Source: an uncultured Sporosarcina sp.
GTDB lineage: Bacteria; Bacillota; Bacilli; Bacillales_A; Planococcaceae
Direction: 5' to 3'
Length of the DNA: 61,619 nt
Assembly (NCBI GenBank): GCA_948469885.1
Contig: CAOKMT010000011.1
Span: 1 to 61,619, forward strand
The notes below the pieces were generated by a model. It did no database searches and had not been told where the DNA came from. It saw only the letters and a program-made list of their open reading frames with translations. Positions 1-18,541 of the stretch are shown one piece after another. A program made the position numbers and the translations under genes. Within the stretch, counting starts at the first letter, position 1. Each line of letters begins with the position of its first letter.

Positions 1-229
1 GCCCAAAGCGAGGCATATCGCGCCTAAAGTTAGCGTATCTGCGCCCAAAGCGAGGCATATCGCGCCTAAAGTGGGCGTTCCTGCGCCTAAAGCGAGGCAT
101 ATCGCGCCTAAAGTGAGCGTATCTGCGCCCAAAGCGAGGCATATCGCGCCTAAAGTTAGCGTATCTGCGCCCAAAGCGAGGTGAATCGCGCCCAAAGTTC
201 TCATTCCTGCGCCTAAAGTATATGAATCC
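1..229. repeat. 21-bp tandem repeat array
   Basis: About eleven consecutive 21-bp units begin GCGCCTAAAG or GCGCCCAAAG, with unit starts at 20, 41, 62, 83, 104, 125, 146, 167, 188 and 209; the array continues off the left edge. Two unit types (ending GCATATC, and GCGTATCT or similar) alternate, giving a 42-bp higher-order period. The last two units are diverged. As 21 is a multiple of three, the plus strand is open in one frame (repeating Ala-Pro-Lys heptads) until a TGA at 182-184, and one minus frame is open too. No start or ribosome site is visible, so I read this as an intergenic minisatellite. A 6-bp hairpin (227-243) follows it. Confidence 0.9.
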
Positions 230-298
230 ACTCTCGAAGTGGAGTTGCGGCCGCCTAAGATGGTAAACTAAAGGCATATGAATTTTGGAGGAATCGGA

Positions 299-1669
299 AT
301 GTCTTTTATTGTAAATCGAAATGATCGTCTTATCGTCTCTGTGGAAGATTTGACGCATGACGGGTCAGGCGTTGCCAAAGTGGAAGGGTATCCGCTATTC
401 ATCCCGGGTGCACTGCCGGATGAGCGAGTTGAAATCGAAGTGACGAAAACGCTGAAAAAGTATGGCTTTGCGAAATTGCTCAATGTAAAGCAAGCATCGC
501 ACGATCGCGTGGATCCGCCTTGCCATGTGTTTCCTGAATGCGGAGGCTGCCAGTTGCAGCATTTGTCTTACGAAGGACAGTTGTTGCGAAAACGAAAAAC
601 GGTACGGGATGTTATCGATCGTATCGCAAAACTCCCCCACGTTCCGGTTCATCCGGTGAAGGGGATGGAGAATCCATGGCGCTATCGCAATAAATCGCAA
701 ATCCCGTTTGGGGAACGGGACGGAGAAGTCATTTCGGGTTTTTTCCGTTCCCGCACCCATCATATCGTTGACACGGATGTCTGTATTATTCAAAGTATAG
801 AAGCGGATCACTTGATGACGGCACTTAAACGAGAGATGGACGTTCTTGGTATTCAAGCATATGACGAAAAGACCCACAAAGGCATGTTGCGTCATTTAAT
901 CGTCCGGAAAGGGCGCGCAACAAACGAAATCATGGTCGTTTTCGTAACGCGGAAAAAGAAGTTTCCGCAAAAAGAGGCCGTCGTCGAATTAGTGAAACAT
1001 GTGATCCCGGAAGTGACCTCAATTATACAAAATGTAAATGATAAGAAAACGAATGTCATTTTCGGAGAAGAAACAATTGTCTTGCATGGTAAACCGTTCA
1101 TTGTTGATTCGATCGGTGATATCGATTTTGAAATATCTGCCCGTTCTTTTTATCAATTGAATCCGGAACAAACGGAAGTGCTCTATGGCCAAGCGCTTGA
1201 ATACGCGCAGTTGACAGGAAACGAATCGGTCATCGATGCTTATTGCGGCATTGGCACAATCTCCTTATTTCTCGCGCAAAAAGCGAAAGAGGTGTACGGT
1301 GTGGAGATTGTTCCGCAAGCGATTGAAGACGCGAAGCGAAACGCCGAATTGAACGGCATAGACAATGCGTATTTCGAGGCAGGGCCAGCAGAAGTCGTCA
1401 TTCCGAATTGGTACGCGGAAGGCAAGCGATTCGATGTCCTCGTCGTCGATCCCCCGCGTAAAGGTTGCGATGAGAAACTGCTGAACACGATTTTGGAATA
1501 TAAACCGAAGCGCATTGTCTATGTTTCCTGCAACCCTGCGACATTAGCGCGCGATTTACGGATATTGGAAGACGGTGGCTACCGCACACAGGAAGTCCAG
1601 CCAGTAGATATGTTTCCGCAGAGCAGTCATGTGGAATGTGTATCGTTGCTACAAAGAGAAACTATGTAG
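299..1669 (+). CDS. rlmCD: 23S rRNA (uracil-C5)-methyltransferase, RlmCD type
   Basis: SAM-dependent RNA m5U methyltransferase of the RlmD/TrmA family, 456 aa. An N-terminal TRAM domain (about residues 1-60) precedes an Fe-S cluster motif with the PECGGCQ signature near residue 83. The C-terminal Rossmann domain has the SAM motif [11 protein letters not shown], the VVDPPRKG motif and the catalytic-cysteine motif [11 protein letters not shown]. Length and domain order match Bacillus YefA/RlmCD, which methylates U747 and U1939 of 23S rRNA; the exact target uracils are inferred. The ATG at 299 is chosen over one at 278 because GGAGG (287-291) sits 7 nt upstream of it. Single gene, typical core GC, directly left of the AT-rich island. 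Confidence 0.9.
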
Positions 1670-1846
1670 AAATCCTTAGTTTTAAACACTTTCACAAGCA
1701 TTTCGTGTTTGTAGGAGAAGGTGAAAAAACAAGAAATAAAGTACTGAAAAACCACATTACCGTTTCGGTGGTAATTGATCTGGGGTGTGGGAACACAATA
1801 GAATAAATATAAAAATCATTAATTAAGAATTGGTGATGCTACTTTT

Positions 1847-1889
1847 AACAGCGATTGTAAGATAAGAAAATTTACAGTCGCTGTTTTTT
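1847..1889 (+). terminator. Rho-independent terminator-like hairpin
   Basis: AACAGCGATTGTAA (1847-1860) pairs with TTTACAGTCGCTGTT (1871-1885) with one G-T wobble, followed by a T run. It lies 180 nt beyond rlmCD with no gene between, so it may end read-through from rlmCD or be left from a lost gene. Confidence 0.7.
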
Positions 1890-2653
1890 ATATAAAAATG
1901 AATAGGTGGTTTATCGATTTGGAAACTGGTGGCGATAACAAATTGAATTATATTGCAGTAGGCATGTAATCAGGCGAAAATATCAAAGTGTCTCAAACAT
2001 AAAAGTCCTAATAATACCGTCTTATGAAGGATTTTAGGACAGCTGCTACTATTCCCATCCTGTTTTCCGTGTAAAGAATATAAAACAGAATGCGATAATA
2101 TCAGGTTTTTAGAACAATATAAGAAACAATAAAACACGATAAATAAAAATAATAGTGCAATTTTTGCACCTAATCATATCCTGTTTACAAATGGAAGTTA
2201 AATTCTAAATTCAATATTTTTTTAATGATGTTTGTAATGAGTGTCTAATCTTTTTACTAGAACATATTTTCAGTTTTTAGTATTAAATTTGATGAATGAA
2301 ATAGGTACATTTTATATATAAAATGGTGTAATATAATAAATTAAATTTTTTGAAGGCTTAATGATTTTGAAAATGGGAGATTAATGAAAGAATAGTTGGT
2401 AAATGAACTTTAGACAAAATCTGTATATGTGATTCTTTAAAATTCACTACTTTAAGCTTTACTAGCAATTGTGATGATTAGGTTATATTTAGGATTTAAA
2501 CGTAAGTTTTCAAAAACAATTGATTTCTTAGCTAGCTTTCATTACTTTGGAGCTAGTACTTAACGTTGCCATGCGAAAGGTTTGTCGTTAAATCAACTGT
2601 TCAAATAAACTTTTCTTATTTCTATTTTATAATAGTAAACATTTTAATTAATA

Positions 2654-2681
2654 TTGTCCCAATATATTCACTTTTGTCCCA
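2654..2681. promoter_or_regulatory. Direct repeat TTGTCCCA x2, possible operator
   Basis: The octamer TTGTCCCA occurs at 2654-2661 and 2674-2681, exactly 20 bp apart (about two helical turns, so the same face of DNA), 43 bp upstream of the first defence gene. That gene product ends in a helix-turn-helix-like segment, so autoregulation through these repeats is a reasonable inference. No matching -35/-10 pair could be placed with confidence. Confidence 0.4.
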
Positions 2682-2723
2682 CGATGTGTTATAGTTATGT
2701 TATTAAGGAAGGAGGTTCAAATC

Positions 2724-3791
2724 GTGAGAAAGCAAAATATTTTAAACTTAATTAAATATCACGTAGAAAAGAATGAAAATGCGTTTAGGAATGAGGCAAT
2801 AGAGATTGCCAAGCGATTTGACAGCATAGGTGATTATCAATTAGCTGAATACATTATGGGATTAATAGCAGAGTCTAACCTATATACTCCACAAGCAAGT
2901 GATTTTGAGAGTGATTTTCTTAAAACAATGGATACAAAGAATCTTTTACCATTAAATCTACCAGTTGATATCACGGAAGATATAAAAGGAATTATAAACG
3001 CAATCCACCATAATATAGGCATAAACAAGTTTCTTTTTGAAGGAGTTCCAGGAAGCGGAAAAACAGAAGCCGCTAAGCATATAGCAAGACTTCTAGAAAG
3101 AGTTTTATATTATGTTGACTTTGATAATTTGATTGACAGTAAACTTGGTCAAACAAATAAAAACATCTCTCGTGTTTTTCAAGAAATCAACAACCTGACG
3201 TATCCAGATAGAACAGTGATTCTTTTTGATGAGATTGATGTCATAGCTCTTGATAGAATAAATCAAAATGATGTACGTGAGATGGGACGAGTAACCTCAA
3301 CGATTCTTAGAGAGTTAGATCGTCTTACCGATTTGAATAAAGAAATTGTGTTGATTGCAACTACAAATTTATTTTCTAATTTTGATAAAGCTCTTTCAAG
3401 ACGTTTTGATGCAGTCATAAATTTTAATAGATATTCGAAACACGATTTAATTGAAGTAGGAGAACACTTCTTTTCCTCGTATATAAAAAGTTTTAAAAAC
3501 ATTTCAAAAGATGTTCGTTTATTTAGGAAAATCCTTACTATTTCACCTGACTTGCCATATCCGGGTGATTTAAAAAACATTATAAAAACATCGTTGGCAT
3601 TCAGTGATATCGACAATGGCTATGATTATTTAAGAAGACTTTATAATAATTTAATTGGTGATCTGGACAAAACGAATATCAATGAATTATATGAACAAGG
3701 GTTTACGGTTCGTGAAATTGAAAAGTTAACTGGTGAATCAAAAAGTAGTGTTTCTAGAAAGCTGACGGAGGAAAAAACAGATGGCAAATAA
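2724..3791 (+). CDS. AAA+ ATPase, IetA-like, with C-terminal HTH
   Basis: AAA+ ATPase of 355 aa. The P-loop GVPGSGKT is at residues 107-114, Walker B LFDEID has its acidic pair at D169/E170, and a sensor-1 segment IATTNLF is followed by an SRRFD arginine-finger stretch. The last 35 residues (GFTVREIEKLTGESKSSVSR) look like a helix-turn-helix, suggesting DNA binding. The GTG at 2724 is preferred over the ATG at 2697 because AAGGAGG (2709-2715) lies 8 nt upstream of it. The gene overlaps the following subtilase gene by 11 nt. AAA ATPase plus S8 protease is the architecture of IetAS, known from Ti plasmids and listed among anti-phage systems. Family assignment rests on architecture and motifs only. 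AT-rich, consistent with horizontal acquisition. Confidence 0.75.
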   Translation: MRKQNILNLIKYHVEKNENAFRNEAIEIAKRFDSIGDYQLAEYIMGLIAESNLYTPQASDFESDFLKTMDTKNLLPLNLPVDITEDIKGIINAIHHNIGINKFLFEGVPGSGKTEAAKHIARLLERVLYYVDFDNLIDSKLGQTNKNISRVFQEINNLTYPDRTVILFDEIDVIALDRINQNDVREMGRVTSTILRELDRLTDLNKEIVLIATTNLFSNFDKALSRRFDAVINFNRYSKHDLIEVGEHFFSSYIKSFKNISKDVRLFRKILTISPDLPYPGDLKNIIKTSLAFSDIDNGYDYLRRLYNNLIGDLDKTNINELYEQGFTVREIEKLTGESKSSVSRKLTEEKTDGK

Positions 3792-6021
3792 CGTTTTGGA
3801 ACTTAGAGGGAAACGGTTTGTTCAAGCTTCCAGAAATGGGAGACCAGCTGGTGCCAACATGAATAGACAACGGAATGTTACGGCTAGTGATTTGAGTAGA
3901 TTGCAAAGTAAAGTGGAACAGATTAAAAACTTTTGGCATGGAGAGTCTAGACCTTTTCAAGGTATTTTAATAAGTGTGCATTACTGCAAAATTGCTGCTA
4001 AAAGTAATCGCATTGCTGGATTACTGAAAGGAAAAGATTCTAATGAAGCAGTGGTAGGTGCTAAATTTAATACCGAAAAAACTAAACACATAATTACCTA
4101 TTATGTATCAAGTTCAGATCTAGATAAAACAATTAGATTGCTTGGGGACGCAAAAAACATTCTAAATAAACACTATGATGGATGCATAGATAAAGAAACT
4201 TTTGATAATAAAGCGAAGATAAGACGGATAAAGTTTGATAATTCTATTATTAGTATGTCCTTGTTTAAGCAAGTCCTTGCAGATGTGTCTTATATTGAAG
4301 ATTTTGAAGTGGATATAGCTGAAAAAGAGAGAAAAGAAAGTATCGTAACCCTTTTTGATACCAATATGAACGTCCGCGATCTTCTTAAAGGCTTAGGAAT
4401 TGATATTATTGGAGCCCGTGTTTTAGGCGATCAGACAGTTTTTTTGAGTGAAAATGAATTAAAACAGTTATATGAAAAAGCGCCATATTTAATTTCGATG
4501 GCAACTGCAGATTTATCTGAAATGTCTCCAAGTGATTTTAATGATGATTTTTCGGAACCAATAATGAGTATACCTGATCCTGATGTTGAACCAACCATTG
4601 GCGTAATAGATACTCTTTTTGATGAACGTGTTTACTTTAGCAATTGGGTTGATTATCATCAGTTGGTTGATTCTGAAATTCCAATTGAGCCCAAGGATTT
4701 TCGACATGGTACAGGTGTATCTTCTATCATCGTGGATGGACCAAGGTTAAATCCTTGGTTAGATGATGGTTGTGGACGATTTAAAGTTAGGCATTTTGGA
4801 ATTGCAACAGGTGGTAATTTTTCTTCCTTCACTATTATAAAAAAAATCAGAGAAGTTGTAGCATCAAATTCTGAAATTAAAGTATGGAATATCTCTCTTG
4901 GTAGTAATCAGGAAATAAATGATAATTTTATTTCCGCAGAAGCTGCAGTTTTAGATCAAATACAACATCAATATGATGTGATTTTTGTGATAGCTGGAAC
5001 TAACAAGACCCACCCTGATTTGGTAAAGGTGGGCTCACCTGCGGATTCAATAAATGGTATTGTTGTTAATTCTGTAACAAAGCAAGGATTGTCAACAACC
5101 TATTCGCGGAGAGGTATTGCATTATCCTTTTTTGCAAAACCGGATGTAGCCTACTATGGTGGGAGTGCTGAACAATATATTAAAGTTTGTGAACCATTAG
5201 GAGCAGCAGACGTAGCAGGTACCTCTTATGCTGCGCCTTGGATAGCAAGAAAGCTATCATATCTTATTGACATTTTAGGACTTAATCGAGAACTTGCCAA
5301 GGCAATGATTATTGATGCAGCAAAAGGTTGGAACTATAGACCTAATCCAGAGCAGGTTTCTTTATACGGACATGGAATAGTCCCTATTAGAATTGATGAT
5401 ATAGTCAAAACTGCTGATGATGAAATAAAGTTTCTTATAACTGATGTTAGCGAAAAATGGAATACTTATAGTTACAGTTTCCCAGTGCCTTTGAATGATG
5501 ACAAGTATCCTTACGTTGCAAGAGCGACAATGTGTTATTTTCCAACTTGTAATAGAGCCCAAGGTGTGGACTATACAAATACTGAGTTAAACATCCATTT
5601 TGGAAGAATCAAAGATGATGGTAAAATTTATACTATTAATGGTGACAGACAAAATGAAGAAGATAAACTATTTGAGGATAGGTTTTTGCTTCTTGAATCG
5701 GAAGCTAGAGCTAATTTTCGAAAATGGGATAATGTAAAATATATTGCAGAGATTCCTAAATCCGGTAATAAGGCAAAGAAGTCCTACGAAAATAATAAAA
5801 ATTGGGGTATGGAGGTGAAGACAACTAATCGATTAGATCCAAAGGATGGTGAAGGCCTTCGTTTTGGAGTTGTTGTTACACTTAAGGAAATTAATGGAAT
5901 TAACCGCATTGATGAGTTTATCCGAAATTGTAATTTAAACGGGTGGATTGTTAACGAGTTAGATATTCAAGTTAGAAAAGATATTCACCAAATTTTAAGT
6001 GAAGAAATAGAATTTGAATGA
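3781..6021 (+). CDS. Cytoplasmic subtilisin-like (S8) protease, IetS-like
   Basis: S8 serine peptidase of 746 aa with an intact catalytic triad: D277 (GVIDTLFD), H309 (HGTGVSS) and S482 (GTSYAAPW); the oxyanion asparagine is probably N408 (AGTN). There is no signal peptide or membrane segment, so it should act inside the cell, unlike secreted subtilases. About 270 residues precede the protease domain and 230 follow it; these probably sense or select substrate. Start ATG 3781 has GGAGG 9 nt upstream. Its 11-nt overlap with the AAA ATPase gene implies translational coupling and a shared complex. In IetAS systems the ATPase and protease form a conflict module; the substrate is unknown. Confidence 0.78.
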   Translation: MANNVLELRGKRFVQASRNGRPAGANMNRQRNVTASDLSRLQSKVEQIKNFWHGESRPFQGILISVHYCKIAAKSNRIAGLLKGKDSNEAVVGAKFNTEKTKHIITYYVSSSDLDKTIRLLGDAKNILNKHYDGCIDKETFDNKAKIRRIKFDNSIISMSLFKQVLADVSYIEDFEVDIAEKERKESIVTLFDTNMNVRDLLKGLGIDIIGARVLGDQTVFLSENELKQLYEKAPYLISMATADLSEMSPSDFNDDFSEPIMSIPDPDVEPTIGVIDTLFDERVYFSNWVDYHQLVDSEIPIEPKDFRHGTGVSSIIVDGPRLNPWLDDGCGRFKVRHFGIATGGNFSSFTIIKKIREVVASNSEIKVWNISLGSNQEINDNFISAEAAVLDQIQHQYDVIFVIAGTNKTHPDLVKVGSPADSINGIVVNSVTKQGLSTTYSRRGIALSFFAKPDVAYYGGSAEQYIKVCEPLGAADVAGTSYAAPWIARKLSYLIDILGLNRELAKAMIIDAAKGWNYRPNPEQVSLYGHGIVPIRIDDIVKTADDEIKFLITDVSEKWNTYSYSFPVPLNDDKYPYVARATMCYFPTCNRAQGVDYTNTELNIHFGRIKDDGKIYTINGDRQNEEDKLFEDRFLLLESEARANFRKWDNVKYIAEIPKSGNKAKKSYENNKNWGMEVKTTNRLDPKDGEGLRFGVVVTLKEINGINRIDEFIRNCNLNGWIVNELDIQVRKDIHQILSEEIEFE

Positions 6022-6118
6022 TTATATCTTTTAATGAGGTATTAATACGATTAATCTAAATTCGGAATGAAGTAGGTCGAAATTTTAAAAATGAGAAATT
6101 AAAGAAGGGGTGATATTA

Positions 6119-7498
6119 GTGTATGATTGCTCGAAAGAATTTAACAAATTTTACCGGACAAAAGTTGTACTTCCAGAAAAAGAAAAAAATGAACTAAGAA
6201 AAAAACGCAAACTAAATATAAAGAGATTAAAAGACGGCTTATTGGAATATAACGAAGAAAAGAGAAAAGAATATAAAATTGCAGAGGAAAGAATTCAAGG
6301 TAGTATGGCCATGCACACTATTACCCAAAATGACGAAAATGACTATGATATAGATGTCGGTATAGTATTTGAATCAGACAATCTGAATGATTTGGGACCT
6401 CTTGCTACTAGAAATATGGTGGCAGATGCGCTGGAAAGAAAAACTAAACAATTTGCAGAAGAACCAGATGTAAAAACAAGCTGTGTGCGTTTGAAGTATA
6501 TTTCTACAGGTTATCATGTAGATTTTGCTGTGTTCAAAAGATATAAAGAGTATTCATGGGATGATGAGTATACTTATGAACATGCTGGATCTGAATGGTC
6601 TGTTAGACATATAAAGGCGCTAGAAGAATGGTTTAACGATGAAATAAAGAATAAAGGAAATGATTTAAGGAAAGTCATAAGACTTTCTAAGATGTTTTGT
6701 AAATCAAGAGACTCGTGGAAAAATATGCCGAGTGGTTTAATTCAGACCATTGTGTGTAATGAAAAACTTACTACAACCTACTCACGATTGGATGAAATAT
6801 TCTATTATACAATGAAAGCTATTGTGAATCGTTTAAATTTTTATTTGGAGGTTGAAGCTCCAGTTGACAATGGAAGAGCGTTGGTAACTCGTGAAGTAGA
6901 CTACCAAAGAATGAGAAATTGGAAAAGTCGTCTTGAATCCAATCTACAAAATTTAGAGGTGTTATTTGATGAAGAATGTACTTATAAAGATGCTATAAAT
7001 GCTTGGAGGACATTCTTTAATCATTCTTATTGGGAAGAATTGGAACTATCGGCTATAAGTAAAAGATTCAGCGAGAATAAATTACAAGATTTTAATGATA
7101 CTGAAGAATTTATTGAAGATTTATATCCTATTCATGAACAATATGATGTAACAATTGATTGCAAGATATCTGGTAATGGGTTTTCAGTAATGCCGATTTT
7201 AGATTATTTAGATAAATTTGCACCACGTTTTAAAAAATTTATACCACATAATTTTTCTATTAAATGTAGAATTGGAAGTACCAACTGTCCGTCGTATGAT
7301 AAGGTATTATGGAAAGTTATAAATGTAGGAACTGAAGCTGAACGACGTAACGACATCCGTGGTCAAATTCAAGATAGAGGTAAGGAAATAACAGAGAATT
7401 CAAGTTTCCTCGGAGAACATTATATTGAATGTTATTTGATAAACAATGGTGTATGCGTGGCAATTGGTCATATAGATGTTCCAATTGGAGGAAATTGA
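6119..7498 (+). CDS. CBASS CD-NTase (cGAS/DncV-like nucleotidyltransferase)
   Basis: Nucleotidyltransferase of 459 aa from the SMODS/CD-NTase family, expected to make a cyclic oligonucleotide alarm signal on phage infection. The pol-beta active site is intact: GS at 61-62, the metal-binding pair D77/D79 in YDIDVGIVF, and a third acidic residue at D135 in YHVDFAVF. The GTG at 6119 is preferred to the GTG at 6110 because AAGAAGGGG (6102-6110) would otherwise overlap the start. It lies 97 nt after the subtilase gene with no terminator between and is followed 1 nt later by the effector gene. No Cap2/Cap3, HORMA or TRIP13 genes are present, so this would be a minimal (type I) CBASS. The nucleotide product cannot be told from sequence. 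Confidence 0.87.
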   Translation: MYDCSKEFNKFYRTKVVLPEKEKNELRKKRKLNIKRLKDGLLEYNEEKRKEYKIAEERIQGSMAMHTITQNDENDYDIDVGIVFESDNLNDLGPLATRNMVADALERKTKQFAEEPDVKTSCVRLKYISTGYHVDFAVFKRYKEYSWDDEYTYEHAGSEWSVRHIKALEEWFNDEIKNKGNDLRKVIRLSKMFCKSRDSWKNMPSGLIQTIVCNEKLTTTYSRLDEIFYYTMKAIVNRLNFYLEVEAPVDNGRALVTREVDYQRMRNWKSRLESNLQNLEVLFDEECTYKDAINAWRTFFNHSYWEELELSAISKRFSENKLQDFNDTEEFIEDLYPIHEQYDVTIDCKISGNGFSVMPILDYLDKFAPRFKKFIPHNFSIKCRIGSTNCPSYDKVLWKVINVGTEAERRNDIRGQIQDRGKEITENSSFLGEHYIECYLINNGVCVAIGHIDVPIGGN

Positions 7499-7499
7499 T

Positions 7500-8423
7500 T
7501 TGAGAGAATATAGTTACAAAATAAAAATGTTGAAAATGCTAGCATTTCTGATTGGCTCTATTATATGTGTAGGGAGTATAATTTATTTTGAAATAAATGC
7601 GATTTCTATAGGAGCAACTTTAGGAGGTTTAGTTGCAGGATTTCTACTCCCATATCTATTTCCAAGCATTGTTGATTTAAGTGATAATAAGAATTGGAAA
7701 TCCTCTCAGCGTAAATTAAAAAGAGCTGGTTTGCTACAAAATGATACGTTTATTAGAATTTCATTTGCGTACTTATTTAGAATGAAAATTGACGGGAGGT
7801 ATTTTTTAGTACAAAATACTAGAACAAAAAAGTATCAGCCAGTTGGTGGAGCGTATAAGTTTTATGAAGAAGAGGCAAATTATTTAGCAGATAATATTCC
7901 AGCTGAAAGTGATGATCGCATTCCAGTAAATAAGATTACGAAACAAGATTACAGATTATTGGTTAAGAGTAAAGACTTAAGAAGATTTGTTAGTAGATTT
8001 GATAAAACATTTTATAGAGAGAATATAACTGATCTTAGCAGAGAATTTGTTGAAGAGCTATTTAAAACAAATATTTTAGATGAAAGTACATTTGGTGATT
8101 TATCATACAAGTACTGTGGAAGGCATATGACAAATGTTGAGTATGGTAATGTGTTTAATCATTATGAATTACTTCTAGCAGATATTATTGAAGTTCAATT
8201 GACAACTAAACAGGAAGAGTTATTCAGAAAGCTCATGGAAAAGGATTGTAGCAAATATCATTTTGCACAAGCTGATGAAATCAAATCATATGGTGTTGTT
8301 GGGTATGGAACTGACAAACTTACAGACGATATTGCTAACCATACCCCTAAAATTCTAAGTGAAAACACAGATAAATTAATAATGAGAAACAAACATAAAG
8401 AAATAATCACTGTTCAACTCTAG
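7500..8423 (+). CDS. CBASS effector: two TM helices plus NUDIX-like domain (Cap16-like)
   Basis: Protein of 307 aa. Two membrane helices (about residues 12-31 and 33-55) are followed by a cytoplasmic domain resembling the SMODS-associated NUDIX domain: strand FLVQNTRTKKYQPVGG, then a degenerate Nudix box with REFVEEL near residues 181-187. In CBASS, such TM-NUDIX effectors bind the CD-NTase nucleotide and disrupt the membrane, killing the infected cell. The TTG at 7500 is chosen because GGAGG (7487-7491) is 8 nt upstream and it begins 1 nt after the CD-NTase stop; an ATG at 7476 would sit inside the previous gene without a ribosome site. The box is incomplete, so the domain may bind rather than hydrolyse nucleotides. 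Confidence 0.78.
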   Translation: MREYSYKIKMLKMLAFLIGSIICVGSIIYFEINAISIGATLGGLVAGFLLPYLFPSIVDLSDNKNWKSSQRKLKRAGLLQNDTFIRISFAYLFRMKIDGRYFLVQNTRTKKYQPVGGAYKFYEEEANYLADNIPAESDDRIPVNKITKQDYRLLVKSKDLRRFVSRFDKTFYRENITDLSREFVEELFKTNILDESTFGDLSYKYCGRHMTNVEYGNVFNHYELLLADIIEVQLTTKQEELFRKLMEKDCSKYHFAQADEIKSYGVVGYGTDKLTDDIANHTPKILSENTDKLIMRNKHKEIITVQL

Positions 8424-8516
8424 TAGATAATGTAAACTATCAAAATAACTCCCGTTTTAGAAGAAGGAAATAAATACAAAAATTTACTAAATATAAAATT
8501 GAATACATGAAAAAAT

Positions 8517-8548
8517 GACACTTCAAAAATGAGGTGTCTATTTTTTTC
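8517..8548 (+). terminator. Terminator of the defence cluster
   Basis: GACACTTCA (8517-8525) pairs with TGAGGTGTC (8530-8538) with one wobble, followed by TATTTTTTTC. It closes the IetAS-CBASS gene run 94 nt after the last stop codon. Confidence 0.85.
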
Positions 8549-8574
8549 ACTTAATTTAGAAAGGAAGTGAACCA

Positions 8575-8631
8575 ATGAAAAAAAGAAAAAACTGCATTAA
8601 AGGTCGGTCACCACCGACTAGAAAATTTTAA
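8575..8631 (+). CDS. Possible 18-residue leader peptide
   Basis: A short Lys/Arg-rich frame with a good ribosome site (AAAGGAAG, 7-8 nt upstream of the ATG). It contains the dyad GTCGGT/ACCGAC. It sits just upstream of a truncated ICE gene and could be a leader or attenuator peptide of that element. No homologue is recognised; low confidence. Confidence 0.25.
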   Translation: MKKRKNCIKGRSPPTRKF

Positions 8632-8675
8632 AAACAAGATTGATTTAACCATAAAAGTTAAAGGAGCGAAAACCT

Positions 8676-8741
8676 ATGGAATTAAAATATGTCATTCCAA
8701 ATATGGAAAAAACGTTTGGGAATTTAGAATATGCTGGTTGA
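8676..8741 (+). pseudogene. Truncated DUF961 (YdcP / Tn916 Orf23-like) gene
   Basis: An intact ribosome site (AAAGGAG) and ATG open a frame starting MELKYVIPNMEKTFGNLEYA, which I recognise as the N terminus of DUF961 proteins carried by Tn916/Tn1549-type conjugative elements (normally about 100-130 aa). It stops after 21 residues, exactly where unrelated, highly structured sequence begins. This marks a deletion or recombination junction in an ICE remnant. Identification rests on recall of the family N terminus. Confidence 0.6.
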
Positions 8742-9161
8742 TTACAGCCAATGGAATGTACCACCTCTGCCATCTTTCTTACCAGCGAATGACAAGCAGT
8801 TTACCATAGCCTTCATTTAATTAATTGCCCCTACATGGTAGACGTAGATATAGGATATACAATGGCTGGGGAAGGCTGCCGATACTTAAACTCACAACTT
8901 TACACCGAGTGACGGGCATGATAGCCTTGGCGGGGCAAGCCAGCGCGTGTTGCTGGTTTCCAGGCCTGGGACTCATGCCTGTGGAGGCTCGATGTAAAGT
9001 GTTAACTAGCGCATGCCGCTTTGTGATCATGCTGTTTAAGACCGCTAACTCCCCAGCAGGTGTGCATCTCAGTGTAATGGTACACGAAGGTGGCATTACG
9101 TGGTAAGTTTCTTGGCATTCAATGGTAAAAAAGATGTCACAAGTGGTAAAATTACGTGGCC
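8742..9161. other. Highly structured non-coding block in ICE remnant (ncRNA or oriT-like)
   Basis: This block is GC-richer than its surroundings and nests a series of stems: 8865-8872 with 9050-9057 (8 bp); 8897-8909 with 8988-9000 (13 bp, one mismatch); 8914-8921 with 8973-8980 (8 bp); 8924-8930 with 8960-8965 (one bulge); and 8937-8944 with 8952-8959 (8 bp, 7-nt loop). A separate hairpin GTGTA/TACAC is at 9072-9085. Long frames on both strands here (about 90 codons each) are by-products of the near-palindromic structure. It lies between a cut ICE gene and a cut recombinase gene. Candidates are a transfer origin, a structured RNA carried by the ICE, or part of a mobile RNA. The family is not identified. 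Confidence 0.6.
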
Positions 9162-10193
9162 GTAATCATCTTTTACTCAGGAAGAAAGCAAAAATATAAG
9201 CGAGAACGTTAAATGGGCGATAAAAAAGAAGTTTGAGCGAGGAGAACTCATGATAAACACTGAGAGGTTCCTCGGATACGATAAGGATGGACATGGAAAC
9301 TTAATCATAAATGAAGAGGAAGCAGAAATTGTTAGCCGGATCTTTATGGAATCCCTTCAAGGGAAAGGGGCTTTCACCATCGCAAGAAATTTAAAGGATT
9401 TAGGCATTGGCGTCATTTTTGAAAAAGAAAATATTAATACACTCGATGCCAAAGGGGAAGTATTGTTAAGCAACCTTTCCAGTCTTGCCCAGGACGAAAG
9501 AAGATCTATTTCTGAAAACTCGACATGGGGAATTCGGCGGCAATTCGAACAAGGAAAGGTCGCACTCAACCCTACAAAATTCATAGACTACGGTAAAGAT
9601 GATGATGGCAGCCTGATCATTAATGAACCACTAGCCAAAGTTGTCAGAAGGATTTTTATAGAATATCTTGACGGGAAAGGACCAAACCGAATCGCCAGAG
9701 GAAAAAAACTTCGCAGAAAAGCATGGTTTTTATAGGGTGGACTACGGAAGCAACGAAAACCCCTTCGCCGGAAAAGTGATATGCGGAGATTGCAACGGTG
9801 CTTTTGGCAGAAAGGTTTGGAATTCAAACGATGATAGGTTTAGAAGAAGAATCTGGAGGTGCAATAAAAATTATACTGAGAAAGAGAAAAGGGGCTGCAG
9901 CAATACGCACATTGAAGATAATGCCCTTACCAAACTTTCATCAATGTTTATAATGCCATCTTGGAAAACAAGGACTACCTTATGCAAAAGTGGCGTGAGA
10001 AGGAAGATAGTGAAAACCATCTCGAGAAATATAAAGCTAAGAAGTTTATTGAGATCATTATAAATGCCAAACCGATTGAACGTTTGACATGAATTTATTC
10101 TTTAAACTTGTCGAAAAGATGACGGTGTTTAAAGATAGCATAGTGATTGTATCTTTTCTCGATGGCACGGAAGTTGAGTGTCAAATTGAATAA
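9162..10193 (+). pseudogene. Mosaic, decayed large serine recombinase
   Basis: Pieces of at least two large serine recombinases are joined. The first starts mid-protein at a SSFTQEES motif (about 9162), runs through the SENVKW and FLGYDKDG regions, then at LKDLGIGV joins in frame to the catalytic-domain end of a second copy (EKENINTLDAKGE, then a second SISEN and YGKDDDG). The frame then shifts near 9715 into the zinc-ribbon region (CGDC at about 9784), shifts again near 9940 (YNAILENKDYLMQKW) and again near 10089. The N-terminal catalytic serine region is missing from the first copy, and the stretch before the zinc ribbon is deleted. It cannot encode a working recombinase; it probably mobilised parts of this island. 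Confidence 0.85.
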
Positions 10194-10220
10194 ACAGTTT
10201 ATCAAGGTGCAAGGAGTGAA

Positions 10221-10266
10221 CATACAATCAAAAACCAGGGATTGTCTCCAGGGTCTTGATTGTATG
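10221..10266. terminator. Perfect 11-bp inverted repeat hairpin
   Basis: CATACAATCAA (10221-10231) and TTGATTGTATG (10256-10266) are exact reverse complements around a 24-nt loop. It sits between the recombinase remnant and the end of the minus-strand sigma-factor gene. It may act as a terminator for converging transcripts or be an end structure of the lost element; no long T run follows. Confidence 0.45.
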
Positions 10267-10304
10267 CGATCTTAACTTTTTATAAAACTGATAATATTTA
10301 TAGG

Positions 10305-11489
10305 TCAGGGGACCAAGTCAAATTGATCAATTTTCTTATAGATTAATAGACTCCGCAATTTTGAAATGGCCCTTCCTTCAATCTGACGTATTCTTTCTCT
10401 AGTGACAGAATAGTCTTTCCCTATTTCCTCTAATGTTTTTGGCTCTCCATCTTCAAATCCCATGCGCTTTTTTATTATTTCTGCTTGTCTTTTAGGTAAT
10501 TCATCTATTAAGTCAAGTAAGGTGTTATATATATCGTTTTCAATTACTTGATCAATTGGATTCTTTAATTCTAATAGATTTATATTAAAATCCATATCCA
10601 TCGAAGGGATGACTAAATCTACTAAATCGGTATCGTCATTTTCATCAGATACGGTTATATTTAACGAACTAATATTGAGGAAAGAGTATTCAATATTTTT
10701 CAGTACGTAATACTTCTCGATAGTTATATCTAAGCTTGTGCTTACGAACTCGATGTTAATATGGCCCAGTGTTCTGAGTGAATCTCTCTCATAATTTCTT
10801 AGTTTATTTATTGTTTCGTGGAGGTGAACAGGAAGCCGAACTGTATATCCATTATCATTAATGTAACGCGTAATAGATTGGCGGATCCAAAAAGTAGCAT
10901 ATGTAGAGAATGAATACCCCAGTGATAAATCAAAACGGTCAATTGCTTTAATCATTCCGATAACACCCGTATTAACCAAATCATCAAAATCTAGTTTGTG
11001 TCCAATCCCCATGTATTTTTTTGCTATCTTTTTCACGAGTTTTAAGTTGGCTGTAATGAGTAATTCAAGAGCTAAATTATCTTCTGAAGACTTGACTTTC
11101 TCTAAGAGATCTTGATTGTCGTTGTAAGTTATATTAGAAATATCGATAGAGTCATTTTCAAGTTCATCTAGAAAATCGTTGGGATTAAACTTCGCTAGTA
11201 ATACACTAGTATTAGAATTTTTAATAGTATCAATGCCTAGGGGGGGAGGTTGAAAAATATTATTATCAAGGGATGAATGTCTTTTTTTCGCTACTGATTT
11301 TATTGGAGTCGTGCTTGACTTGAAATTATAATACCCCTTTTGTTTTAAATATGAGATAACTTCATCTGTGTTAATAATTTTTCCAGTTTCTAACCTGTAA
11401 AGATTACATAGCCAATCTACATTAATAACTGATTCAGAATTAAAGTTTAATAAACGGTGGTCAAAAATAGTTTTCATATTGTTGGACAT
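10305..11489 (-). CDS. Sigma-70-family RNA polymerase sigma factor
   Basis: Protein of 394 aa. Region 2 is clear (LDFDDLVNTGVIGMIKAIDR, then YSFSTYATFWIRQSITR), a region-3-like segment follows (TVRLPVHLHETINKL), and region 4 ends the protein (TLEEIGKDYSVTRERIRQIE). It resembles RpoD/group-2 sigmas rather than ECF sigmas, but the N-terminal 130 residues are unlike region 1. The ATG at 11489 is chosen because AGAGGG lies 9 nt upstream on the coding strand. It is divergent from the helicase gene across an 85-bp gap. AT-rich and inside the island, so not the housekeeping sigma. It may direct transcription of the helicase or of itself; that is inference. Confidence 0.85.
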   Translation of the reverse strand: MSNNMKTIFDHRLLNFNSESVINVDWLCNLYRLETGKIINTDEVISYLKQKGYYNFKSSTTPIKSVAKKRHSSLDNNIFQPPPLGIDTIKNSNTSVLLAKFNPNDFLDELENDSIDISNITYNDNQDLLEKVKSSEDNLALELLITANLKLVKKIAKKYMGIGHKLDFDDLVNTGVIGMIKAIDRFDLSLGYSFSTYATFWIRQSITRYINDNGYTVRLPVHLHETINKLRNYERDSLRTLGHINIEFVSTSLDITIEKYYVLKNIEYSFLNISSLNITVSDENDDTDLVDLVIPSMDMDFNINLLELKNPIDQVIENDIYNTLLDLIDELPKRQAEIIKKRMGFEDGEPKTLEEIGKDYSVTRERIRQIEGRAISKLRSLLIYKKIDQFDLVP

Positions 11490-11574
11490 TTTATAGCACC
11501 CTCTACGGAATGTACCAATATTTTTGTATATGTAATACAATGGTACCATATATATTTGTGTGGGAGGGAAACTA
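11490..11574. promoter_or_regulatory. Divergent sigma/helicase intergenic region with inverted repeat
   Basis: The 85-bp gap must hold both promoters. GTACCA (11512-11517) and TGGTAC (11541-11546) form an inverted repeat around an AT-rich centre containing TATATG/TAATAC-like boxes. This could be an operator or the recognition element of the linked sigma factor; not distinguishable here. Confidence 0.45.
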
Positions 11575-14500
11575 GTGCTGAAAAACATCTTTTTAAAAGA
11601 ATTTCAAAAACTAAGGGAACGGTATGCAAATGAAAAAAAGATAACTTTTGTATTCAAAGGATTTCCGCACGATTGGTTGAAAGTGTTAGAGCAGGATAAA
11701 TTATTACCAATTTCACTTGAAACACCTTTACATGAAGTAAATAACCAAAGGCAAAATTTGATTGTCCAATTTGTCACCACTATTTTGGAAGGTAACAATA
11801 AATGGCTTACATTCGAGGAATTTGCAACCATCCCATCGGATAACTTTCAAGCATTCACAAAAACAATTGTTGTAAATAACAATTTTTTTGATTCGTATTA
11901 CCCATTAGAGTATAGGATACCGCCACACCACATTGAAGAATATCAAAGAGAAGAAAAAAATAATCAAGACTCGGAATATGACTATTTAAGTGATTATTAT
12001 TCTAGCATGGAGATATCCAATAAAGGGAATTACTTTGTATCATATATAGATGAAGAAAAACATGAACAAATATCGTTATTTTCAAAAAGTGAAGTTCCGT
12101 TGGAGTGCGATTTGATAAATGCAGATGTTCCGTTTGTAGAAGTAGGAGCGGAAATGGCACTTGATTTTTATGATTTATTATCAAGTTTCCAAAAAGGTAT
12201 ACCTAAAGAAATTTACGTAAGCTGGATAGATTATAAGACTGCTAATTACACTGCTCAAATAAATCTAGATAAGATAAAGGTTTTAAAAAACTATTTACCA
12301 GATTTAAAGGTATATCGCGTATTAAAAGTTGTTCCCGAACAGTTAATTCCTTCTGAACGAGAACAGGAATATTTGGATATCTTAAAAAGATACTGGGGAT
12401 ATAATTCTTACAGAAATTTGCGTGTTTATAAGAATGTAGATTCCTTAACTGATAAAAAAGCAACAGTAGATATTTCACAGATGCAAATAATAGACTCGAT
12501 AGTGTTGCAGGCAGAACAGGCAAAAGGTTATGAAGATGTTCCGGATTTCAGGGATGTTTTTGTTACTGCTCCGACTGGTGCGGGTAAATCAGTAATGTTT
12601 CAAGTCCCAGCGATATATTTAGCGGAAAAATACAATTACTTGACCATTGTTATATCTCCGCTAATTGGTTTAATGAAAGACCAAGTTTATAATTTACAAG
12701 AAAAAAATGTAACTTTTTCAGCGACGATAAATTCTGAAATTTCACCCGTCGAGAAAGCTAATATTGCACAACGTATAGCTGATAAAGAAATATCTATACT
12801 ATATATTTCACCTGAAACGTTATTGAGCCGTGCGGATGTCACTGCCTTAATTGGTGAAAGGGAAATAGGATTATTTGTTATTGATGAAGCCCATATTGTA
12901 ACAACTTGGGGAAAAGCATTCCGTGCAGATTATTGGTATTTAGGAGACTACTTACAAAAAATACGTCGAGGAATACAATATAAAGATGGGAAGAGGATAG
13001 AAGAAACTACATCAAAACATCGCTTTCCAATTGCTACTTTTACAGCTACGGCAATTTATGGCGGAATTGAAGATATGTATGCAGAGACACGGGACAGTTT
13101 ATTGTTGAATAACCCAGTTAATTATTTTGGTTATGTGAAACGAGATAATATTCACATGAATATTAATAAAATAGATAAGGAAGCATCTACAGATAATGAG
13201 TATTTAAAGATAAAACATAAACTTTTATTAAAGAATATTGAATTTGAATTAATTTACGGTAGAAAAGTTTTGATTTATTTCCCGCTCGTAAAATCTATTT
13301 TTGACTTTAAGAATTATTTAGAGACCTATGCTGACCGAAACATAACAGGCCAGGTAAGTGAGTATTATGGGAAATTAAAGAAGGAAGAAAAAAATGAGAG
13401 TTTTTTACGTTTTAAGGATGGGAACTCTAAAGTAATGTTAGCTACAAAAGCTTTTGGAATGGGGATAGATATTCCAGATATTGATACGGTTATTCACTTT
13501 GCACCAACGGGAAACGTTTGCGACTATGTCCAGGAGATTGGAAGGGCTGCAAGGGATTCAAAAAAAGTGGGACAAGCATCTTTTTCATTTTTAAAGGAAG
13601 ACTTTAAACATGTCAATAGGCTTCATGGTATTAGTACGCTTAGAAAATCTCAGCTTATTCAAGTTATACAAAAAGTGTTAGAGTTGTATAAACTTAGGAG
13701 TGGTCAAAAAAATGCTCGTCACTTATTAGTGAGTGCAGAAGAGTTTTATTATATATTTCAAGGCAAAAAAGATGATGCTGGATCTGTAAATAGTGATCAA
13801 TTAGATAATCAGTTAAAAACCGCATTATTAATAATAGAAAAAGGCTTTATAAATTCGCCACTTAAATATTCTCCTATAGTTGCACGACCCAGAAGTATAT
13901 TTTCTGTCGAATATTTTAAGGTGCTTAAAGAACAAGAAAACCTGCTTAATCAACAGTATGGAAAATATATCGAAAAGCATTGCGAAATAATAGGAGAAAG
14001 GCATTCCAGTGTATACAAGCTATTCTTGGATGCAATGTGGAGAGATTTATATAGTCAAATATCATTTCCAAACTTTAAGAGATTGTTACACGAGAAAGCA
14101 GACGATTTAAATAATAAGGTGCTGACAAATTTAAATTCGATTTTTATTATTAACTTAAAGCTCAATAATAGAAATCAGGCTCAATTTTTACGAGATTTAG
14201 AGAGTTCATTAGAAAAAATAAATAAACTTTTTTCTACGTATATTATTAAGCGCAAAGTGTTTACAAATGGAGACATAGAAAGCGATTTGGTAAGAACGTT
14301 GGAATACTCATCTTATAAGGCAGAATCCTTTGTAATACAGTTGCTTGAGAGTGTAACCCAATATGAAAATATTATGAACTCCTCAAGCACACAGCGTACA
14401 AATATTTTAATAAAAAATGAATATCGGAATAAAACATCTTATAAGATATTACCCGCACTAAGCGGGTTTACAAAGTTTATTTTAAACGAGACAAATAAAA

Positions 14501-14952
14501 TCCTTCATAATTCAAAAGGGGGAAACCAAGAAAATTACTTGGAATATTTTATTCGTAAACAGGATAGGGTTGGCACTGCGAAACTATTTTTAGTCCTAGG
14601 AATGCTTGAAATGATGAATTTGGCTCTTTATGAAGTTAAAGGCGGTGACCATCCACAGATTTATATACGTGTTGGTTCACAGTATCAAATTGAAAAAGTG
14701 TTAAACGCCCCGAAGAGTTACAAAAATAGCATTCTAGAGAATGTACATGAACGACATAATACATCGGTTGAAATGTTGAAGTTTTTATTTGGGAATGAAA
14801 AGATGGAAACTGATGAGTTTTGGAATTATATTGAGGATTATTTTTTAGGAGAATTACCAAAAGAAGTGGAACAAGCGTTAGAGAAAAAGAAAATAGAAAG
14901 AATAGAAAAATACAGGAAAAAGAATTCCGGGACAAGTGAAACGAATATGTAA
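11575..14952 (+). CDS. RecQ-like superfamily 2 DNA helicase
   Basis: Protein of 1125 aa. Helicase motifs resemble RecQ: motif I TAPTGAGKSVMFQ near residue 332, the SPLIGLMKDQV motif, motif II VIDEAHIVTTWGKAFR near 435, motif III FTATA, and motif VI QEIGRAARDS near 653. About 320 residues precede the helicase core and 450 follow; neither part resembles RQC or HRDC domains, so this is not a housekeeping RecQ. The GTG at 11575 follows GGGAGGG by 6 nt. Divergent from the sigma-factor gene. In this setting a defence or plasmid/phage-conflict role is plausible but not shown. AT-rich like the rest of the island. Confidence 0.8.
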   Translation: MLKNIFLKEFQKLRERYANEKKITFVFKGFPHDWLKVLEQDKLLPISLETPLHEVNNQRQNLIVQFVTTILEGNNKWLTFEEFATIPSDNFQAFTKTIVVNNNFFDSYYPLEYRIPPHHIEEYQREEKNNQDSEYDYLSDYYSSMEISNKGNYFVSYIDEEKHEQISLFSKSEVPLECDLINADVPFVEVGAEMALDFYDLLSSFQKGIPKEIYVSWIDYKTANYTAQINLDKIKVLKNYLPDLKVYRVLKVVPEQLIPSEREQEYLDILKRYWGYNSYRNLRVYKNVDSLTDKKATVDISQMQIIDSIVLQAEQAKGYEDVPDFRDVFVTAPTGAGKSVMFQVPAIYLAEKYNYLTIVISPLIGLMKDQVYNLQEKNVTFSATINSEISPVEKANIAQRIADKEISILYISPETLLSRADVTALIGEREIGLFVIDEAHIVTTWGKAFRADYWYLGDYLQKIRRGIQYKDGKRIEETTSKHRFPIATFTATAIYGGIEDMYAETRDSLLLNNPVNYFGYVKRDNIHMNINKIDKEASTDNEYLKIKHKLLLKNIEFELIYGRKVLIYFPLVKSIFDFKNYLETYADRNITGQVSEYYGKLKKEEKNESFLRFKDGNSKVMLATKAFGMGIDIPDIDTVIHFAPTGNVCDYVQEIGRAARDSKKVGQASFSFLKEDFKHVNRLHGISTLRKSQLIQVIQKVLELYKLRSGQKNARHLLVSAEEFYYIFQGKKDDAGSVNSDQLDNQLKTALLIIEKGFINSPLKYSPIVARPRSIFSVEYFKVLKEQENLLNQQYGKYIEKHCEIIGERHSSVYKLFLDAMWRDLYSQISFPNFKRLLHEKADDLNNKVLTNLNSIFIINLKLNNRNQAQFLRDLESSLEKINKLFSTYIIKRKVFTNGDIESDLVRTLEYSSYKAESFVIQLLESVTQYENIMNSSSTQRTNILIKNEYRNKTSYKILPALSGFTKFILNETNKILHNSKGGNQENYLEYFIRKQDRVGTAKLFLVLGMLEMMNLALYEVKGGDHPQIYIRVGSQYQIEKVLNAPKSYKNSILENVHERHNTSVEMLKFLFGNEKMETDEFWNYIEDYFLGELPKEVEQALEKKKIERIEKYRKKNSGTSETNM

Positions 14953-18496: not shown

Positions 18497-18541
18497 AAAA
18501 AAGTCAAAGCCAGCTTGAAACGGTGCCGGCTTTGACTTTTT
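18497..18541. terminator. Bidirectional terminator
   Basis: AAAAAGTCAAAGCCAGC (18497-18513) pairs with GCCGGCTTTGACTTTTT (18525-18541) with one mismatch. It has A-run and T-run flanks and can end the oxidoreductase transcript on plus and the methylase transcript on minus. Confidence 0.9.

What the first reader, a model, noticed from the sequence alone, without database searches (positions are those of the whole stretch)
2654..8548. IetAS-like pair and minimal CBASS in one co-directional cluster
An AAA+ ATPase with intact P-loop, a cytoplasmic subtilase with intact Asp277/His309/Ser482, a CD-NTase with intact GS...DxD...D and a TM-NUDIX effector follow each other with an 11-nt overlap, a 97-nt gap and a 1-nt gap, ended by one terminator. 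Each half is known as a separate defence system. The tight linkage raises the idea that the protease/ATPase pair acts as a sensor or regulator of the CD-NTase, as ancillary proteases do in other immune systems. The alternative is simple island clustering.
Basis: partly seen in the sequence, partly recalled or inferred. Interest (0 to 1): 0.82.

Follow-up and report, generated by a model that had tools for sequence, protein, structure and literature searches.

The report
Two phage-defence cassettes joined side by side
Two bacterial anti-phage gene pairs that travel separately in related bacteria lie end to end here, and the second may have come under the control switch of the first; that switch, a repeated DNA word in front of the first pair, was found in most of the relatives examined.

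Summary
The genes are as described: IetA-like AAA+ ATPase, IetS-like subtilase, CD-NTase, 2TM-NUDIX effector, with intact catalytic residues and the stated spacing. One four-gene system is not supported. Window 2599-6088 (IetAS) is 95.7% identical to a Bacillus locus without CBASS; 6089-8737 (CBASS plus the start of an ICE gene) is 79.5% identical to an rlmD-linked ICE without IetAS: two cassettes meet within about 10 nt. In the DNA held around 80 IetS loci no close relative of this CBASS was found. Three of the 80 have a different NUDIX CBASS right behind ietS; they are one lineage, and four relatives have unrelated sequence in that slot. No terminator-like site separates the cassettes and the stretch upstream of CBASS in relatives is missing, so read-through from the ietA promoter is plausible but rests on weak promoter predictions. 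That promoter carries a tandem TTTGTCCC repeat (20-21 nt period) around the -35 box; two GTCCC copies are present in 74 of 87 loci, and the two loci with a changed C-terminal HTH in IetA lack it. This suggests autoregulation by IetA, of which I found no report in the papers opened. Coupling, if real, would be transcriptional rather than a protease sensing the CD-NTase.

The parts
2654..2680 (+). tandem direct repeat TTGTCCC-N13-TTGTCCC (GTCCC at 2656 and 2676), proposed operator of the ietA promoter
   Evidence: 1 match in the window, 0 in 100 shuffles; conserved before ietA in most relatives; 40 of 46 exact matches in 80 IetAS genomes lie before ietA
2667..2695 (+). promoter-like site TTCACT-17-TATAGT with TG before the second hexamer; the second repeat lies in the spacer
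   Evidence: 9 of 12; pattern only; similar placement in relatives
2724..3791 (+). IetA-like AAA+ ATPase (355 aa from GTG 2724; ORF open from ATG 2697) with C-terminal HTH (three helices, residues 319-353)
3781..6021 (+). IetS-like S8 subtilase, Asp277/His309/Ser482
2599..6088 (+). IetAS cassette: stretch 95.7% identical to L046 (Bacillus sp. HF117_J1_D), where no CBASS gene is found
   Evidence: the genome of L046 has no AGS_C match (G657)
6089..8737 (+). CBASS plus start of an ICE gene: stretch 79.5% identical to L148 (rlmD-linked ICE without IetAS)
   Evidence: that genome (G483) is not among the IetS matches
6119..7498 (+). CD-NTase (DncV-like NTFase plus AGS_C), GTG start
7500..8423 (+). 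2TM-NUDIX effector (Sa_NUDIX, REFVEE), TTG start
8517..8538 (+). terminator-like stem-loop with T run
   Evidence: pattern only
1670..1798 (+). stretch just behind rlmD that matches the same place in L148; read as the left end of the ICE-like element (inference)
   Evidence: match 1127-1798, 65%, includes the rlmD 3' part
8677..8737 (+). first codons of a DUF961-type (ICE) gene; similarity to the ICE stops here

Best explanation
Two complete, separately inherited defence cassettes have been stacked in the cargo region of a decayed Tn916-like ICE behind rlmD. The first is a divergent IetAS pair: AAA+ IetA (antitoxin/controller type) and subtilase IetS (toxin/effector type). The second is a minimal two-gene CBASS: CD-NTase, cyclic nucleotide, 2TM-NUDIX membrane effector (steps from family knowledge, inferred). 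Each is expected to sense and act by itself. No terminator-like site separates them and the stretch upstream of CBASS in relatives is missing, so the CBASS genes are probably read from the ietA promoter. That promoter carries a tandem TTTGTCCC operator which IetA most likely binds through its C-terminal HTH, in the manner of toxin-antitoxin autoregulation. Shown by sequence: joints, families, conservation of the repeat, its link with the HTH. Inferred: binding, repression, read-through, phage defence. My odds by part: stacking of separate cassettes 0.9, binding of the repeat by IetA 0.7, CBASS read from the ietA promoter 0.55. The overall figure was lowered from 0.8 when I noted that the promoter sites predicted in the relatives are also at chance level.
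For: Joint: L046 match 2599-6088, L148 match 6089-8737, L005 match 6101-8402. Separate occurrence: in the DNA held around 80 genome IetS loci no close CD-NTase or NUDIX relative is found (70 of the 80 have at least 1.5 kb and 55 at least 5 kb behind ietS); the 40 plasmid records with a NUDIX match and the 30 with an IetS match share no accession (compared by eye); in 397 Bacilli genomes other than the window's, IetS in 3, AGS_C in 15, both in 0. Slot: 7 related loci share IetAS at 89-97.5% nt; 3 have CBASS behind ietS, 4 have unrelated sequence there. CBASS without a promoter of its own elsewhere: in L006 it overlaps the end of a recombinase gene. Repeat: two GTCCC, 20 or 21 nt apart, in 74 of 87 loci and 26 of 33 representatives, 0.1 expected; the two loci with a changed HTH lack it.
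Against: A different NUDIX CBASS lies behind ietS in a second lineage, and both cases are of the NUDIX kind, which is rare (Sa_NUDIX in 6 of 398 Bacilli genomes); pure chance would make that unlikely. But the window was chosen for this feature, so only the second lineage is independent, and it is one event. That second CBASS type was not seen on its own: no close relative turned up in plasmids or viral contigs. Promoter predictions are weak everywhere: L148 3 sites found, 2.3 expected; L005 1 found, 1.9 expected; window gap 1 found, 1.4 expected. Of the 80 loci, 10 have under 1.5 kb behind ietS. No expression or binding data exist for this locus.
Confidence: 0.7

Rival explanations
1. IetAS is a regulator or sensor of the CD-NTase: the protease or the ATPase acts on the cyclase, like ancillary proteins in other CBASS types, so the four genes are one system.
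For: Tight co-directional linkage; a second lineage with a different CD-NTase and NUDIX effector right behind ietS; IetA also hits the TRIP13 profile (3e-18).
Against: Each pair stands alone in close relatives; joints at the cassette edges; genome co-occurrence not raised; other defence genes fill the same slot. The two CD-NTases are only distantly alike, so a shared interface is not obvious.
Confidence: 0.07
2. Plain island clustering with no coupling of any kind: CBASS has a promoter of its own within ietS or the gap.
For: A weak promoter-like site at 5984-6013; IetAS has many kinds of neighbours; 16 of 78 next genes point the other way; promoter-like sites in the relatives are no better than chance in number.
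Against: The 5984-6013 site is at chance level (1 found, 1.4 expected); no terminator-like site in the gap; the stretch upstream of CBASS in L148 is missing.
Confidence: 0.4
3. The tandem TTTGTCCC repeat is bound by a host regulator rather than by IetA.
For: No binding data; I do not know of an AAA+ antitoxin proven to be a repressor.
Against: The repeat follows ietA across very different hosts together with the HTH; exact matches elsewhere in the same 80 genomes (6) are near the reversed-pattern control (5); the two loci with a changed HTH lack it.
Confidence: 0.2

Closest known systems
IetAS (PADLOC IetA PDLC02196, IetS PDLC02197); AAA+/subtilase toxin-antitoxin pairs: ietAS of pTiC58 (as cited in other papers), sgiAT of SGI1 (PMC5006074), TA132/133 of Mycoplasma mycoides (PMC8562856)
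   Same: Same two protein kinds in the same order, ATPase first; mobile; lengths like the mycoplasma pair (353/757 aa).
   Different: Far below the NCBIfam IteA/IteS cut-offs. Tandem TTTGTCCC repeat and matching HTH, which the passages that I read of those papers do not mention.
Two-gene CBASS with 2TM-NUDIX effector (Cap16 type; PMC10419184, passages)
   Same: CD-NTase with AGS_C plus an Sa_NUDIX effector with N-terminal membrane segment; the same pair at 55-82% identity on Mammaliicoccus, Enterococcus and Lactiplantibacillus plasmids.
   Different: Of the window-type pairs seen, only this one follows ietAS.
ICE cargo behind rlmD (L148)
   Same: rlmD, then CBASS, then DUF961, FtsK-like, Rep_trans and AAA_10 genes (the Tn916-like label is recalled).
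   Different: In the window the ICE breaks off after the first codons of the DUF961 gene, and IetAS lies between the ICE end and CBASS.

Membership tests
IetAS | AAA+ ATPase with Walker A/B followed by S8 subtilase, overlapping genes | tested here: met
   motifs present, 11-nt overlap
IetAS | intact Asp/His/Ser triad | tested here: met
   D277, H309, S482, invariant in 32 sequences
IetAS | NCBIfam equivalog cut-offs for IteA and IteS | tested here: not met
   100 vs 510 and 157.6 vs 900 bits; hence called IetAS-like, a divergent relative
IetAS | phage defence | not testable with these tools
   needs phage assays
AAA+/subtilase toxin-antitoxin module | toxic subtilase neutralised by the ATPase | not testable with these tools
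   shown for relatives in papers (passages of PMC5006074 and PMC8562856)
AAA+/subtilase toxin-antitoxin module | antitoxin with DNA-binding domain and operator in its own promoter (a common feature of such modules, recalled) | tested here: inconclusive
   sequence signs; binding not tested
CBASS type I | CD-NTase with GS...DxD...D | tested here: met
CBASS type I | effector gene next to it, no recognised ancillary Cap gene | tested here: met
   Sa_NUDIX 2TM effector 1 nt on; of the four proteins only IetA has a match to an ancillary family (TRIP13, weaker than IetA)
CBASS type I | cyclic nucleotide made and sensed by the effector | not testable with these tools
   enzyme assay needed
CBASS type III (HORMA/TRIP13) | HORMA protein plus TRIP13 | tested here: not met
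   no HORMA hit in the four proteins; IetA profile scores better than TRIP13 (1.7e-37 vs 3e-18)

The most novel reading that the evidence does not exclude
IetA is an AAA+ antitoxin that also represses its own promoter through a C-terminal HTH and a tandem TTTGTCCC operator. The promoter is a relay: whatever disables or occupies IetA during infection raises expression of IetAS and of the cargo plugged in behind ietS, here a whole CBASS. One infection-responsive switch would then arm a second, unrelated system.
Probability: 0.3. Interest if true: 0.78.

Novelty: new variant of a known kind. Interest (0 to 1): 0.5.

Why it matters
A defence cluster that reads like one operon turns out to be a join of two mobile cassettes, located to about ten bases, a caution against reading operons as systems. 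The repeat gives a concrete, cheap test of how IetAS is controlled, and suggests that stacked systems can be coupled by promoter capture without any protein contact.

Tried and rejected
Four-gene system: rejected for the reasons given. A wider CBASS link of IetAS: looked for in genomes, not found. Repeat as a genome-wide regulon: rejected. Of 46 exact matches in 80 genomes, 40 lie before ietA (38 by exact string, one further upstream in L016, one at a second ietAS copy in G679 found through the motif alone) and 6 lie elsewhere, against 5 for the reversed pattern. My first genome scan used the wrong spacer (periods 19-20 instead of 20-21): 22 matches in 41 genomes, 20 before ietA by my reading of the places, and 32 matches in 31 of 299 Bacilli genomes against 21 for the reversed pattern by my count. 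Three viral contigs with the pattern carry GTCCCGTTTTGGGAC palindromes and no IetA match. Rfam: nothing in 1660-10300. Viral scans with the two CD-NTase alignments: no relatives. Distant IetA loci L094-L113 show no GTCCC pair upstream in a rough search. Fold searches gave proteasome/Vps4-type AAA+ motors for IetA and ordinary subtilases for IetS, so nothing on the partner. Subtilase-CD-NTase interface modelling could not be run (single chains only). Literature searches. One search (the repeat as a string) returned 2,722 papers, of which 12 were listed, and told nothing. Of the papers listed I opened PMC5006074, PMC8562856, PMC10954446 and PMC3874152 (passages only); PMC7256200 and PMC11878078 were not opened. 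The 2009 pTiC58 paper is not held, so whether it reports autoregulation is not known to me.

Rows dropped: the PADLOC neighbour survey used 128 of 257 downstream ORFs (one search lists 257; near-duplicate lineages, short and further ORFs left out, L041 standing for L039 and L042), and its output shows only the 25 commonest families. The 176 upstream ORFs listed were not scanned as a set (one, from L042, was). Of the 24 next genes within 100 nt, 19 were scanned and L041; L039, L042, L069 (near copies) and L038 were not. L060 was not searched. Operator table: 93 IetAS loci considered, 87 counted; L009, L050, L090 (cut ietA), L089 (no upstream DNA), L055 and L062 (alignment starts at residue 5) left out; on a later look L055 and L062 both have the pair, in L055 about 170 nt upstream. 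Near-duplicate loci are in the 87; the 33 representatives correct for that. AGS_C finds only CD-NTases with that domain.

Full report
Observation. Two starts need shifting: IetA to GTG 2724 and the CD-NTase to GTG 6119, the latter matching the starts annotated in plasmid relatives. IetA and IetS are well below NCBIfam's cut-offs and belong to a divergent branch that includes a Mesomycoplasma hyorhinis pair (50% and 42% identity).

Joints. The stretch 2599-6088 matches L046 (Bacillus sp. HF117_J1_D) at 95.7% over 3490 bases. There other genes follow, no CD-NTase or NUDIX match is found in the locus, and the whole genome has no AGS_C match (G657). The stretch 6101-8402 matches the Mammaliicoccus sciuri plasmid locus L005 at 81.8%. 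The stretch 6089-8737 matches L148 at 79.5%. L148 reads rlmD, CD-NTase, NUDIX, then DUF961, FtsK-like, Rep_trans and AAA_10 genes, a Tn916-like ICE set by recall; IetAS is not in the 12 kb taken, and its genome G483 is not among the IetS matches. The window shares the rlmD 3' part and about 130 bases after it with L148 (1127-1798, 65%). It then has 1799-6088 where L148 has 133 bases, and rejoins L148 at 6089. By alignment the similarity to L046 fades at about 6082-6088, so the joint is placed within about 10 nt. The window's ICE breaks off after the first codons of the DUF961 gene.

How often do the pairs meet? A scan of one genome per species gave 160 IetS relatives, of which the best 80 were returned. 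Behind ietS, 70 of these 80 have at least 1.5 kb of DNA and 55 at least 5 kb. In the DNA held, no close CD-NTase or NUDIX relative is found. Three loci (L039 Granulicatella, L041 Peptoniphilus, L042 Gemella) have a distant NUDIX and CD-NTase directly after ietS: a 235-aa 2TM-NUDIX, a CD-NTase of about 490 aa with SMODS and AGS_C, and a membrane protein of unknown family. L039 and L042 are 95% and 89% identical to L041 at DNA level, so the three count as one event. Four further loci (L033, L034, L040, L045) share their IetAS with L041 at 94-97.5% up to two bases after the ietS stop, then differ completely, then share the membrane-protein gene again. The place behind ietS is thus a swap site. 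Among 87 loci with IetS (85 plus two plasmids, near-duplicates included), 78 have a next gene of at least 90 aa: 62 on the same strand, 16 opposite, 24 within 100 nt on the same strand. Of 19 of those close neighbours scanned, 8 have a PADLOC match: methyltransferases (2), AbiTii, AbiH, dGTPase, a TIR protein, PDC-S34 and a weak Shedu-like match; 11 have none. The NUDIX gene of L041 is a further one.

From the other side, 40 plasmid records hold a NUDIX relative and 30 an IetS relative, and no record is in both lists (compared by eye). In 398 Bacilli genomes (by the handles, the same draw in each call) Sa_NUDIX is in 6, AGS_C in 16 and IetS in 4; only the window's own genome has both IetS and AGS_C. 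Of 79 genomes with IetAS that could be searched, 5 have AGS_C: the 3 linked ones and 2 on other contigs (G620, G629). In G620 both contigs are short or cut, so the real distance is unknown; in G629 the other contig carries a window-type CD-NTase and NUDIX pair (66% and 54%). Against 15 of 397 Bacilli this is no excess (p 0.35; without the three linked, 2 of 76, p 1.0). The two sets are not matched by taxonomy.

Transcription. L148 and L005 each have a 10-of-12 promoter-like site upstream of the CD-NTase, in DNA that the window does not share, but the numbers of sites are at chance level there too (3 found, 2.3 expected; 1 found, 1.9 expected). The window has only a 9-of-12 site inside ietS (1 found, 1.4 expected) and no terminator-like site in the gap. 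The ietA promoter-like site at 2667-2695 is therefore the likeliest source of CBASS transcripts, an inference from pattern scans. In two of the three loci of the L041 lineage the NUDIX gene starts 22 nt after ietS, in the third 28 nt. In L006 the CBASS pair overlaps the end of a recombinase gene, so it can perhaps live without a promoter of its own.

The operator. While checking the ietA promoter I found a tandem TTTGTCCC repeat. In the window it is 2654-2680 (none in 100 shuffles). Of 87 loci with enough upstream DNA, 74 have two exact GTCCC copies within 120 nt, always 20 or 21 nt apart; 10 have one and 3 none. Among 33 representatives at 80% IetA identity it is 26, with 0.1 expected from shuffles. 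Counting inexact copies, the table over 87 loci is: strong pair and HTH motif 68; weaker pair and HTH motif 13; no pair and changed HTH 2 (L004, L008); no pair but HTH motif 2 (L016, whose pair lies about 190 nt upstream, and L065, which has two GTCCC with other flanks); strong pair but motif missed 2 (L066 with a split IetA, L071 with a one-residue variant). Among the 26 representatives with two exact copies, a -10 box with 5 or 6 of 6 matches follows the second copy in 24, and a hexamer with at least 4 of 6 matches to TTGACA lies between the copies in 19. The HTH consensus is GFTVREIEILTGISKSQVSRELK at the C-terminus of IetA, modelled as three helices, residues 319-353, mean pLDDT of the model 84.8. 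In 80 IetAS genomes, 40 of 46 exact matches lie before ietA, one of them at a second ietAS copy found only through the motif. Matches elsewhere (6) are near the reversed-pattern control (5). In these genomes the exact motif thus marks ietA.

Meaning. AAA+/subtilase pairs are established toxin-antitoxin modules in SGI1 and mycoplasmas (PMC5006074, PMC8562856; passages read), and autoregulation by the antitoxin is common in such modules (recalled). The passages that I read of these and of PMC10954446 and PMC3874152 mention no repression by the ATPase. PMC5006074 even suggests that sgiAT needs positive activation for expression, which does not speak for simple repression in that relative. I could not read the 2009 pTiC58 paper. 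The 2TM-NUDIX effector resembles Cap16, said to act by membrane damage, with a NUDIX mutant still toxic (PMC10419184, passages). PMC13427033 (passages) discusses IetAS with Zorya II and Kiwa; CBASS does not occur in its main text. PMC11811056 (passages) lists both IetAS and CBASS in Bacillus cereus without linking them in what I saw.

Verdict. Two known kinds of system, joined by recombination in ICE cargo; no support for a protein-level link; a possible transcriptional link; and a widely kept repeat-HTH pair in this IetAS branch that deserves a bench test.

Noticed in passing
window 10305-11588 (-) and 11560-14952 (+): Divergent overlapping pair: sigma-70-region protein with a PADLOC MzaA match (4.9e-41) and a large DEAD helicase (PADLOC C3a193 1.5e-151, DpdF-like); may be another defence system.
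   Followed up: partly
window 18540-20471 (-) and 20604-21482 (+): Type II methyltransferase and restriction enzyme matches, divergent: a likely restriction-modification system in the same region.
   Followed up: partly
window 1-230: Degenerate tandem array of a short GC-rich unit (gcgcccaaagcgaggcatatc-like) before rlmD (seen).
   Followed up: no
L041 14473-15294 and homologues in L033, L034, L039, L040, L042, L045: Multi-membrane-segment protein of about 275 aa, kept behind the slot whether or not CBASS is there; the two copies scanned (L041, L033) have no Pfam or PADLOC match.
   Followed up: partly
L158, L159, L160: Related viral contigs with repeated TTGTCCCGTTTTGGGACA palindromes near a TATAAT; no IetA match, but operator-like.
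   Followed up: no
L174 (G679:C106): A second ietAS (IetA 78% identical to the window's) with its own repeat, in a genome that already has one.
   Followed up: yes
L066 8967-9990: IetA is split into two pieces in a Saccharibacteria genome although the repeat is perfect.
   Followed up: no
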